IMG/VR virus record: IMGVR_UViG_3300007276_005408
Coordinates: 1-60,174 of that record
Source of the DNA: a virus
Strand: one strand, 5' to 3'
DNA length: 60,174 nucleotides
Shown: in pieces, positions 19,138-25,408 of the stretch
Layout of the letters: each line of letters opens with the position of its first letter
How positions within the stretch are numbered: position 1 is the first letter of the stretch
The notes under the pieces: model-generated
Seen by the model: only the letters and a program-made list of their open reading frames with translations
Databases searched by the model: none
Told to the model about the DNA's origin: nothing
Program-made: the position numbers and the translations under genes

Positions 19138-19365
19138 TCAAGCTTCTCCAATTATCATATCGAACTCACTTTTGAAGTATTCCCTATCCACCATGATGCT
19201 GGGAACGGAAGCCTCAAATAGTTCAGGGTCTTCTTTCATAATACTTAGGATTTCTCCCGTACTGAATATACTTACCATATGCTCTTCGGCTTTGTGTAGC
19301 AGATAGTCCATCTGCTCTTTAGTTACTTTCATCTTTTTGAAGTCTACTTTCTTTTTTTCTTTCAT
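19138..19365 (-). CDS. Small acidic helical protein
   Basis: A 75-residue protein with a basic N-terminus (MKEKKKVDFKKMKVTKEQMD) and an acidic rest. No Shine-Dalgarno is visible; the ATG follows directly on a TATACTTATATA-like stretch, a motif also found just before the genes starting at 28196 and 49200. Function unknown. Confidence 0.55.
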   Translation of the reverse strand: MKEKKKVDFKKMKVTKEQMDYLLHKAEEHMVSIFSTGEILSIMKEDPELFEASVPSIMVDREYFKSEFDMIIGEA

Positions 19366-19389
19366 GTATATAAGTATCTACTTACTTTA

Positions 19390-19936
19390 GCAAAAATCTT
19401 TTTATCTTACCGCTGCTATAAAACTAGCGGAGGGGGGAGTCTCTTATTGACATTGGAAGTCCCCCCACCTAGGGAAATGTGTCTGCCTGTCCATCGGGCT
19501 TCAAACCGTCTGTTACACCCATCACCATTTAGCATATTTATCGGGTCGTTTTTTGGCTCTTCAGTTCAGACACTATTGATTCAATTCTTTGTCGGTATTT
19601 GTATCAGTTCCGACTTCTGAATCTAAAGGTGGGGATTCGAACCCCACAGCCTTACTAACGGACTAATCAGGCAATCACTCCCTTTTGTCCTCAGACAACC
19701 TCTTACCTCAAGAGATGATTAGTCTCTATCAACGGCCTTCTAAAGCCGTACCTTACTCAGTTTGATATCCTATATCTGGCATTTCAGCCCCTTTCGGTAC
19801 GATGTCTTTTTGGGACTCCAGAAGTCTCCGACATTTTGTCAGAGAATCTAACAGTGACTCTCAATCTTAGTCCCTAATTCTTTTAGTGTCTTACAAATTT
19901 TCAAAGAACAACCAACCCATCAAAATCTCTCCCCAA
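19390..19936 (-). ncRNA. Large structured non-coding RNA candidate
   Basis: About 550 nt with no convincing ORF, higher G+C than its surroundings, its own promoter (19945-19975) and a terminator-like hairpin at the far end. On the minus strand it contains many helices: GGGACT/AGTCCC near 19870 and 19808, CGTACC/GGTACG closing a domain near 19800-19750, ACGGC/GCCGT, an 8-bp GACTAATC/GATTAGTC helix 48 nt apart near 19720-19665, and a T-arm-like GTGGGG-TTCGAAT-CCCCAC hairpin near 19640. Size and phage setting recall the ornate large RNAs (GOLLD, ROOL); a group I intron-like core is an alternative because of the paired GACTA/TAGTC strands. I cannot assign it to a family by eye. Confidence 0.6.
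19391..19430 (-). terminator. Terminator-like hairpin at end of the structured RNA
   Basis: Minus strand: CCGCT ... AGCGG with an inner GCTA/TAGC pairing, followed by TAAGATAAAAAGATTTTT. A GGGGGGA/TCCCCCC hairpin lies just upstream, at about 19435-19470. Confidence 0.5.
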
Positions 19937-19944
19937 CCAACATA

Positions 19945-19975
19945 TAAAGCTACAACAAAAAAAGCAGAAAAACAA
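19945..19975 (-). promoter_or_regulatory. Promoter copy 3 (TTG-N20-TAGCTTTA)
   Basis: Minus strand TTG, 20 bases ending in TTTTTTTGTTG, then TAGCTTTA. Less conserved in the spacer than copies 1 and 2 but with identical end elements and spacing. It points at the structured RNA. Confidence 0.7.
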
Positions 19976-20134: not shown

Positions 20135-20665
20135 CTAAATATCTTGTGAACTAGAAATATCTGAGGAGAATAGGCCATTTACAGCCTTGGTAAAGGATTC
20201 CACATTAGACGGAACAGAAGGACCTTTTTGATCCAGCTTGAGTAAGTAGTAACAATTGTAACATAGTAAGCGTAGGTTGCTAAAATCCTTATTGGTGTCG
20301 TCATTATCTAAGTAATCTAACTGTAAAGGCTTAGTCATATCAGAGGTTCTATACTCCTCATACCCACAATTACTGCAACATTCTTCCAGATAACCCTCGC
20401 GTACTAATCTATACTGAAGTTTCGTGGTAGAATAATTAGGATTCTTACCGCTAAGTATATCAGCTATCTCAGTAGGCTTGAATCCTCTTGGTAATCCTGT
20501 ATTCATAGTACGAGGACCACTTGGATTAGGTTGCCATAAATCATATTGTACGGCGTACTTTTTAAAAGTGTTATAAGCTACATTTAGCAATAGGCTGGCT
20601 TGTTTCATACTACGCGTTTCATTTATCGCCCATTGTATTCTATCTTTACTAAGTCTGCTACTCAT
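20135..20665 (-). CDS. Degenerate HNH-type DNA-binding protein
   Basis: A 176-residue protein. The ATG at 20665 is chosen for AGGAGG just upstream. Layout: N-terminal helix-turn-helix (SMKQASLLLNVAYNTFKKYA), a second winged-helix-like part (PTEIADILSGKNPNYSTTKL), then an HNH-type zinc finger with CxxC at 97-100 and CxxC at 135-138. Both usual catalytic histidines are tyrosine: LDY (Tyr118) instead of LDH, and CYNCYY (Tyr139) instead of CxxCH. It is therefore probably a DNA-binding regulator rather than a nuclease. It has its own promoter. Confidence 0.75.
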   Translation of the reverse strand: MSSRLSKDRIQWAINETRSMKQASLLLNVAYNTFKKYAVQYDLWQPNPSGPRTMNTGLPRGFKPTEIADILSGKNPNYSTTKLQYRLVREGYLEECCSNCGYEEYRTSDMTKPLQLDYLDNDDTNKDFSNLRLLCYNCYYLLKLDQKGPSVPSNVESFTKAVNGLFSSDISSSQDI

Positions 20666-20725
20666 CTGAGCCTCCTGTGACATATTGACATACTAAGTTT
20701 ATCAAAATGCTAGAAAAAAATTTGC

Positions 20726-24537: not shown

Positions 24538-24644
24538 TACTTACCTTTTTTCTTATCCTGTGATAACTTTTCAGCTATTGCTGTTATTTTCTTTTCTATT
24601 GACGCTAATAAATTGACAATAGCATTTGCCTGTTGTTCATTCAT
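24537..24644 (-). CDS. Tiny helical protein
   Basis: A 35-residue ORF (MNEQQANAIVNLLASIEKKI then TAIAEKLSQDKKKGK) that starts on the stop of the Mom-like gene and ends on the next ATG. A short amphipathic helix; function unknown. Confidence 0.5.
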   Translation of the reverse strand: MNEQQANAIVNLLASIEKKITAIAEKLSQDKKKGK

Positions 24645-25408
24645 GATGATACTCCTGTTTGTTTATGTACTTCTACTTTTATAACTTCTGACTCTGTTAT
24701 ATTTCTTACTTTAGGGTATGGTAACAGTGGATGTTTCATAGTCTTCATGGCCATTCTCTTATCACTTTTATTACCGAGCAAGTAAACATACCTATGTTTC
24801 CTCATCTCCCTTTTTACCCAAAAATCTTTCTCAACTAAACTTTTCATTTTCTTTATATCGTTTGTCCCGTAATATGGAAATATGGTTCTTCCATGCTGCC
24901 ACTTACCATCTTCTTCAAACTTATATAACCAACTCTCCGTCCACCTCAGATTATCTCCTTGATACAACCAATTGGTTGCCTGATATACAGTACCAACATG
25001 ACCTCTCATTGGGTCTGAATATGATATGAGAGCTTTTATCTTTTGTTTATACTTCTTTAGCCATCTGAAACTCTCTCCTATTAGATAAGACTCAGCATTA
25101 CTACCATACCCATCATGTACAAATAATCTAACCAACTCATATACTGACTTTCTATCTATTGAAGTTGCTATTGAAGCACCTGAATGTCTACCTATTGGGT
25201 CTCCATAACATATCGTACCGATTAGTTTTTCTTCTTTACCCTCAAAAAATGTATGTTCATTATCTGTAGTATAATATAAACCCAAAGCAACAGAACATTT
25301 AGTCCATTGTTTTGAATAGTGGTTAGCAACAATCATTTCTTTTGCTAACATTCTAGGTATTTCTCTAACAGATAATCTGCTAGAATCTACATACTTTTCT
25401 ATAGCCAT
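24641..25408 (-). CDS. Mom-like DNA-modification GNAT protein (paralogue 1)
   Basis: A 255-residue protein. ANHYSKQWTKCSVALGLYY, then YELVRLFVHDGYGSNAESYL, then LISYSDPMRGHVGTVYQATN then W match the core of the phage Mu Mom family, GNAT-fold enzymes that modify adenine in DNA and protect it from restriction. A closely similar paralogue lies at 53683-54444 and a more distant one at 51463-52089. Substrate and product in this phage are not known. Confidence 0.8.
   Translation of the reverse strand: MAIEKYVDSSRLSVREIPRMLAKEMIVANHYSKQWTKCSVALGLYYTTDNEHTFFEGKEEKLIGTICYGDPIGRHSGASIATSIDRKSVYELVRLFVHDGYGSNAESYLIGESFRWLKKYKQKIKALISYSDPMRGHVGTVYQATNWLYQGDNLRWTESWLYKFEEDGKWQHGRTIFPYYGTNDIKKMKSLVEKDFWVKREMRKHRYVYLLGNKSDKRMAMKTMKHPLLPYPKVRNITESEVIKVEVHKQTGVSS

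What the first reader, a model, noticed from the sequence alone, without database searches (positions are those of the whole stretch)
19390..19936. Large ornate RNA with its own promoter
About 550 nt free of genes, flanked by promoter copy 3 and a terminator-like hairpin, with several long-range helices, an 8-bp GACTAATC/GATTAGTC helix and a T-arm-like hairpin. Phages are known to carry giant structured RNAs of unknown function (GOLLD, ROOL). The nearby HNH-type gene also recalls intron or HEARO-type arrangements. It is the strongest non-protein signal in the window.
Basis: partly seen in the sequence, partly recalled or inferred. Interest (0 to 1): 0.78.

Follow-up and report, generated by a model that had tools for sequence, protein, structure and literature searches.

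The report
Swappable structured RNAs in marine phages
A gene-free stretch of a T4-like, apparently marine, virus of bacteria encodes a chain of separate folded RNA modules, one shaped like a transfer RNA, and related viruses carry the same modules shuffled into different combinations, pointing to an unrecognised toolkit of viral RNAs whose job is unknown.

Summary
Window 19388-~19940 (minus strand) is a gene-free transcription unit with a sigma70-like promoter. It is not one giant RNA. It is an array of at least five separate structured modules: A, B0, a tRNA-like cloverleaf (TLS), C and D. A short AAAGAWTT linker recurs between modules.

Related T4-like phage contigs carry homologous loci in which the modules are deleted, swapped or rearranged. 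Structure is backed by covariation: TLS on 14 sequences, covariation score 0.614 against 0.241 shuffled; module A 0.42 against 0.16; module D 0.25 against 0.13 (only four sequences). TLS also exists as a stand-alone gene with its own promoter, and module A occurs alone between gp32-like and uvsX-like genes. In relatives that slot holds a real tRNA-Ala, another three-way-junction RNA, or a plain hairpin.

No Rfam family reached its gathering score; GOLLD, ROOL, HEARO, intron and tmRNA are not supported. The closest precedents are T4's stable RNAs rnaC and rnaD, of unknown function. rnaC also folds as a cloverleaf with a 3' T-arm, but shows no detectable homology. Best reading: a polycistronic array cut into stable trans-acting RNAs. 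The tRNA-mimic or host-takeover role is inference. No expression data exist.

The parts
19947..19975 (-). Promoter-like site TTGTTT-N17-TAGCTT; start of transcription expected near 19936-19940
   Evidence: consensus match only
19812..19874 (-). Module A: three-way junction, outer helix GGGACT/AGTCCC, near-invariant hairpin (A)GGUUAAGAGCC (window: AGAUUGAGAGUC), variable apical helix
   Evidence: 11 sequences, 98.5% paired, covariation 0.424 against 0.162 shuffled
19875..19883 (-). Linker AAAGAATTA between leader and module A
   Evidence: linker motif enriched in 15 array regions
19746..19805 (-). Module B0: helix GUACC/GGUAC enclosing GAAAGGGGCUGAAA ... AACUGAGUAA
   Evidence: closing helix differs in compensating ways (GUACC/GGUAC, GCACC/GGUGC, GUAGU/ACUAC, UGACC/GGUCA)
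19622..19746 (-). tRNA-like cloverleaf (TLS): acceptor-like stem (weak in this copy, 4 of 7 pairs), D-arm-like hairpin, anticodon-arm-like helices, T-arm; no encoded CCA
   Evidence: window copy 125.6 bits, E 6e-30 with model R1 (training member)
19629..19647 (-). T-arm with canonical T-loop GUUCGAAUC
19716..19721 (-). Loop UAAUCA, 5' strand of the proposed pseudoknot with 19672-19677
   Evidence: 98% paired, five of six pairs invariant
19672..19677 (-). UGAUUG, 3' strand of the proposed pseudoknot
19586..19619 (-). Module C: hairpin GUCGG/CCGAC followed by linker ACAAAGAATT
   Evidence: GUUGG/CCAAC in L138
19480..19572 (-). Module D1: helix-bounded module, outer helix UGUCUG/CAGACA (AGUUG/CAACU in relatives)
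19429..19469 (-). Module D2: long hairpin GGUGGGGGGACU/AGACUCCCCCCUCC; followed by U8 in L140, so possibly the array terminator
19388..19418 (-). Terminal inverted-repeat element TAGCAGCGGTAAGATAAAAAGATTTTTGCTA, conserved before the small downstream gene
20135..20683 (-). Neighbour: HTH plus HNH-like Cys-Cys domain with catalytic histidines replaced; syntenic marker, probably not functionally tied
19138..19365 (-). Neighbour: small protein (75 aa), no PHROG match, downstream of the array

Best explanation
The region is a phage gene array for structured non-coding RNAs. It is transcribed leftwards from a host sigma70-like promoter as one precursor of about 550 nt: A - B0 - TLS - C - D - terminal hairpins. 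Each module is closed by its own helix. Single-stranded AAAGAWTT linkers recur between modules and are probably the cut sites (they resemble the RN-WUU preference of RNase E, from general knowledge), while the tRNA-like module offers an acceptor/T-arm stack of the kind RNase P and tRNA-maturation enzymes recognise. Processing would release several stable RNAs, as in the T4 tRNA-rnaC-rnaD cluster. The released RNAs most likely act in trans on the host; the TLS most likely works as a tRNA mimic that engages tRNA-binding factors, as a decoy or competitor. Shown here: homology, conserved structure, modular exchange, stand-alone TLS genes, strand. Inferred: transcription, processing, stability, trans action. 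Guess (about 0.25): the tRNA-mimic role in host takeover or counter-defence.
For: Homologous gene-free loci in related phages, 77-82% identical over parts, with modules in different combinations. TLS covariation: 14 sequences, 24 of 32 pairs changed on both sides, score 0.614 against 0.241+-0.020 shuffled and at most 0.172 when slid. A TLS not used to build the model (G041) was found with all pairs standard at 49 bits, E 1e-10. Module A: 0.424 against 0.162; module D: 0.253 against 0.125. Nearly every array inspected has a promoter-like site 57-112 nt before its first module. Stand-alone TLS genes with their own promoter in L256-L265. Linker motif: 41 overlapping matches against 1.7 expected, 7 per kb against 0.9 per kb in the window's minus strand. 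The same cassette slot between gp32-like and uvsX genes holds module A (G002), tRNA-Ala (G017), module H (six genomes), another structured RNA (G007) or a hairpin (G028). T4 precedent: rnaC and rnaD are separate RNAs confirmed by Northern blot, of unknown function (PMC9697503, PMC3014915), and rnaC folds with a 3' T-arm.
Against: No transcript data for any of these phages. The acceptor-like stem is weak in the window copy and in L124, L137 and L184 (4 to 5 of 7 pairs), so the tRNA likeness may be decaying or serve another purpose there. The pseudoknot helix is nearly invariant, so it is not tested by covariation. The linker motif was defined from these same arrays, so its enrichment is partly circular, and it is absent from L135 and L242. 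No cleavage evidence. No target or partner identified.
Confidence: 0.62

Rival explanations
1. One ornate large RNA (GOLLD/ROOL-like), in which the modules are domains of a single folded molecule that works as a whole, perhaps as an assembly.
For: Length (about 550 nt), phage origin, intricate structure, a candidate kissing/pseudoknot contact. GOLLD also has a conserved 3' and a variable 5' part (PMC12286853).
Against: No Rfam match at gathering score. Modules occur alone (TLS in L256-L265; module A in G002), doubled (A-A in L132, L134), separated by a second promoter (L140, L141), or replaced by unrelated modules in the same context (C against J in L127 and L246).
Confidence: 0.13
2. Cis-acting leader or 3'-end elements: the structures regulate or stabilise the mRNAs of the neighbouring genes (riboswitch, terminator, processing or 3' stabiliser), rather than acting as free RNAs.
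For: In the gp32-uvsX slot the only common denominator is a stable closed structure, from tRNA to a plain hairpin. Module A in G002 is followed by UUGUUUUUUU. The array precedes a small gene in most loci.
Against: Arrays with their own promoters hold up to five modules and no coding sequence; TLS stands alone with its own promoter upstream of yet another promoter; different modules precede the same small gene and the same modules precede different genes.
Confidence: 0.18
3. Decaying tRNA cluster: the T-arms and cloverleaves are remnants of phage tRNA genes under no constraint.
For: Canonical T-loops, one relative with a real tRNA-Ala in a cassette slot, weak acceptor in some copies.
Against: Pervasive compensatory change with invariant non-tRNA loops (UAAUCA, UGAUUR) across the alignments is the opposite of decay; modules A, D and H have no tRNA likeness.
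Confidence: 0.04

Closest known systems
T4 stable RNAs rnaC and rnaD (species 1 and 2 RNA), tRNA cluster of phage T4
   Same: T4-like phage; small structured RNAs in a polycistronic non-coding unit; rnaC minimum-energy fold is a three-armed cloverleaf with 3' T-arm CCGGGUUCGAAUCCCGG next to the closing stem; function unknown (PMC3014915, PMC9697503).
   Different: Models R1 and R2 do not hit rnaC or rnaD; here many more module families, freely exchanged, and usually away from tRNA clusters.
GOLLD and ROOL RNAs
   Same: Large, ornate, phage-borne non-coding RNAs of unknown function (PMC12286853).
   Different: No Rfam match; modular and separable rather than one conserved fold; no tRNA found in the window.
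Phage tRNA gene arrays
   Same: Exchangeable small structured RNA genes in series; one relative has tRNA-Ala in a slot that elsewhere holds module A or H. Some phage tRNAs evade tRNA-targeting defence (PMC11555353, abstract).
   Different: TLS has no anticodon arm of tRNA type, no encoded CCA, and is not called by ARAGORN.
tRNA-like structures such as mascRNA or plant-virus TLS (recalled, not tested beyond Rfam)
   Same: Acceptor stem stacked on a T-arm without a functional anticodon.
   Different: Internal arms and the loop-loop pairing differ; no Rfam match at gathering score.

Membership tests
GOLLD / ROOL | Match to the Rfam covariance model at gathering score | tested here: not met
   whole window, none; E<=10 in the region, no GOLLD or ROOL
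GOLLD / ROOL | Often near tRNA islands | tested here: not met
   no tRNA in the window; tRNA-Ala and tRNA-Cys lie about 5 kb away in L124 and L127
GOLLD / ROOL | Forms RNA-only multimeric cages | not testable with these tools
   needs cryo-EM or native gels
HEARO / group I or II intron / tmRNA / RNase P | Rfam covariance match on the RNA strand | tested here: not met
   only sub-threshold T-arm fragments of tmRNA (10-13 bits) and chance matches
Group I intron or HEARO with HNH gene | Active HNH endonuclease gene inside or linked to the RNA | tested here: not met
   HNH-like protein lies outside the array and lacks His at the catalytic HNH positions in all six homologues aligned
tRNA | Cloverleaf with anticodon arm recognised by ARAGORN | tested here: not met
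   no tRNA called at any TLS
tRNA-like structure (works like) | Seven-pair acceptor-like stem next to a T-arm with canonical T-loop | tested here: met
   T-arm 100% paired, acceptor 84% paired with all seven pairs changed on both sides; weak in the window copy itself (4 of 7)
T4 rnaC / rnaD | Sequence or covariance homology to T4 rnaC or rnaD | tested here: not met
   R1 hits only tRNAs in the T4 region, R2 none
T4 rnaC / rnaD | Cloverleaf with 3' T-arm | tested here: met
   (minimum-energy fold only)
T4 rnaC / rnaD | Stable, separately processed transcripts seen in infected cells | not testable with these tools
   no RNA data here; known for T4 (PMC9697503)

The most novel reading that the evidence does not exclude
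A system of mobile RNA cassettes: T4-like phages keep a repertoire of small structured RNAs of many unrelated families (tRNA-like cloverleaves, three-way junctions, helix-bounded modules). These are swapped between fixed genomic slots and strung into linker-separated arrays, and each disarms or redirects a different host function, the RNA counterpart of an anti-defence protein island.
Probability: 0.25. Interest if true: 0.92.

Novelty: new variant of a known kind. Interest (0 to 1): 0.76.

Why it matters
T4's RNAs C and D are still without a known function. This locus shows that phages related to the T4 group carry an exchangeable set of such RNAs, several of them structurally well defined by covariation and absent from Rfam. 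It supplies alignments, covariance models and natural deletion and replacement variants with which the function of phage stable RNAs could be tested, and it would add several new structured RNA families.

Tried and rejected
Nucleotide search of named phages and plasmids: no match. Close relatives through the downstream 75-aa protein: none. Named relative Mel-JY01 (PolB 47% identical): no homologous RNA seen in the 42 kb inspected, only a tRNA-Leu. Bacteroidetes-type promoter (TTG-N20-TAnnTTTG): considered and dropped, because L142's site fits sigma70 TAnnnT but not TAnnTTTG (by eye). Pattern hits L125, L126, L267-L271 have no covariance or profile support and are taken as chance. The rpsL_pseudo hit in L109 (below gathering) lies outside any array. 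Weak R1 hits in tRNA-rich records are real tRNAs.

Full report
WHERE IT IS. The window is a virus record of 60,174 bases with a T4-type PolB; the best named relative is Microcystis phage Mel-JY01 at 47% identity. Nearly all plausible genes are on the minus strand, and the stretch 19390-19885 holds no ORF of 60 aa or more on either strand. A promoter-like TTGTTT-N17-TAGCTT lies at 19975-19947 on the minus strand, so the unit runs leftwards from about 19936-19940 to the terminal inverted repeat at 19418-19388. Single-sequence folding is only modestly better than shuffles (z -2.4 minus, -2.1 plus). No Rfam family reaches its gathering score anywhere in the window, and even at E<=10 the only suggestive match is a weak tRNA-Sec hit on the T-arm region.

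HOMOLOGUES. PolB relatives gave 70 loci; searching 30 of their records with the region's DNA found homologous gene-free stretches, for example 77% identity over 470 nt in G013, 81% over 232 nt in G026 and 82% over 141 nt in G018. They lie after the same HTH plus HNH-like gene and mostly before a 61-87 aa gene. A scan with that HNH-like protein and scans with RNA patterns gave more. One is on a contig binned as Flavobacteriales (L266), with the same gene order and module A at 48 bits; a bin label is weak evidence of host.

A MOSAIC, NOT ONE RNA. The loci align only in blocks. Combinations seen: window and L138 A-B0-TLS-C-D; L137 B0-TLS-C-G-E; L139 C-E; L127 A-B0-TLS-C, with F in front in L124; L246 A-B0-TLS-J, where an unrelated helix-bounded module J sits in the place of C and is followed by the same linker; L140 leader-TLS-D, then a second promoter and A; L141 B0-TLS, then a second promoter and A; L132 and L134 A-A; L130 F-A; L135 TLS-D; L245 hairpin-TLS plus three further modules; L242 TLS plus G and repeats. 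TLS stands alone, after a leader hairpin and its own promoter, in L256-L265. The linker AAAGAWTT recurs between modules: 41 overlapping matches in 15 array regions against a shuffled mean of 1.7 and maximum of 7. The motif was chosen from these arrays, so this figure describes rather than tests.

STRUCTURE. TLS: acceptor-like stem, D-arm-like hairpin, anticodon-arm-like helices, T-arm. On the MAFFT alignment of nine sequences, 93.2% of cells pair and 20 of 38 pairs change on both sides; covariation is 0.483 against 0.219+-0.021 in shuffles and at most 0.134 when slid. On 14 sequences aligned to the model it is 0.614 against 0.241, slid at most 0.172 (this alignment leans to the model). All seven acceptor pairs change on both sides; examples of complete stems are AGACAAG/CUUGUCU, UGGAAUG/CAUUUCA, UCCUGUG/CAUAGGG, UGGGAUG/CAUUCUA and GGGUUAG/CUAAUCC in G041, which was not in the training set and scored 49 bits with every pair standard. 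In the window, L124, L137 and L184 the acceptor is weak (4 to 5 of 7 pairs). Loop UAAUCA and UGAUUR are complementary in essentially all sequences (98% of cells), but nearly invariant, so the pseudoknot is plausible and untested. Module A: three-way junction, 11 sequences, 98.5% paired, 0.424 against 0.162. Module D: four sequences, 0.253 against 0.125. Invariant U-G and G-U pairs (A: columns 18-24 and 30-77; TLS: 64-124) place the RNA on the minus strand, since they would be A-C on the other.

GACTAATC with GATTAGTC is perfect only here; in 8 of 9 sequences it carries an A-G mismatch and its covariation equals shuffles.

CASSETTE SLOTS. Module A also occurs alone between gp32-like and uvsX-like genes in G002 (39.8 bits). 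In relatives the same slot holds a genuine tRNA-Ala (G017, 71.7 bits), a second three-way-junction RNA, module H (G009, G012, G020, G023, G025, G027), a different structured stretch (G007) or a plain hairpin (G028). Module H recurs elsewhere in G041. So these RNAs behave like tRNA genes: small, self-contained, exchangeable.

MECHANISM. Best reading: a precursor cut at the AU-rich linkers into stable RNAs, as in T4's tRNA-rnaC-rnaD unit. rnaC and rnaD have been confirmed by Northern blot as late RNAs of unknown function (PMC9697503; PMC3014915); a change in the rnaD homologue of a T4-like phage arose in all lines evolved on one host (PMC12685909). rnaC's minimum-energy fold is likewise a three-armed cloverleaf with a 3' T-arm, but R1 and R2 do not detect rnaC or rnaD, so this is likeness and not homology. 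Phage tRNAs can evade tRNA-targeting defence (PMC11555353, abstract), which makes a tRNA-mimic role reasonable but unproven. Main rival: cis-acting stabilisers or processing elements, best supported in the gp32-uvsX slot, where anything from a tRNA to a hairpin serves.

LIMITS. There is no expression evidence. Records are fragments, so absence of a module from a genome cannot be concluded. Module boundaries for C and E-T are read from few sequences. Novelty is rated 'new variant of a known kind' because phage stable RNAs of unknown function are known; the modular exchange and the individual families appear new to Rfam 15.

Noticed in passing
window 20135-20683 (-); homologues in L104-L108, L130-L181: HTH plus HNH-like protein whose catalytic His positions read Tyr or Phe (LDYLD, CYNCY or CFNCF) while the Cys pairs are kept in all six homologues aligned; probably a DNA-binding regulator derived from a homing endonuclease.
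   Followed up: partly
G041 (L242, about 3.0-5.1 kb, minus strand): At least three further structured-looking non-coding stretches near the TLS array, including one bounded by UAGUGGCUCC/GGAGCCACUA; families not examined.
   Followed up: no
L127 5272-5343, L246 526-597: A further conserved helix-bounded element (CGCCCA-ACCUCC ... GGAGGU-GGGCG) just after an AAA-type ATPase gene.
   Followed up: no
window 19388-19418 and equivalent sites in relatives: Inverted repeat TTTAGCGGTACGCTAAATAATATTTAGCTA-like element before the small downstream gene, conserved whichever modules precede it; could be terminator, promoter or operator.
   Followed up: no
L155 3634-4800: Two long tandem non-coding units, each with a promoter-like site and ending in a T-rich hairpin (GACAGAGTAGCTCTCTGTCTTTTTTT), after a more distant HNH-like relative; no match to the modules described here.
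   Followed up: no
window 24641-25408 (-) and 28213-48786 (-): Mom-like DNA modification gene (PHROG 1384, E 2e-51) and a block with several glycosyltransferase-like genes, suggesting modified or glycosylated DNA or surface glycan synthesis.
   Followed up: no
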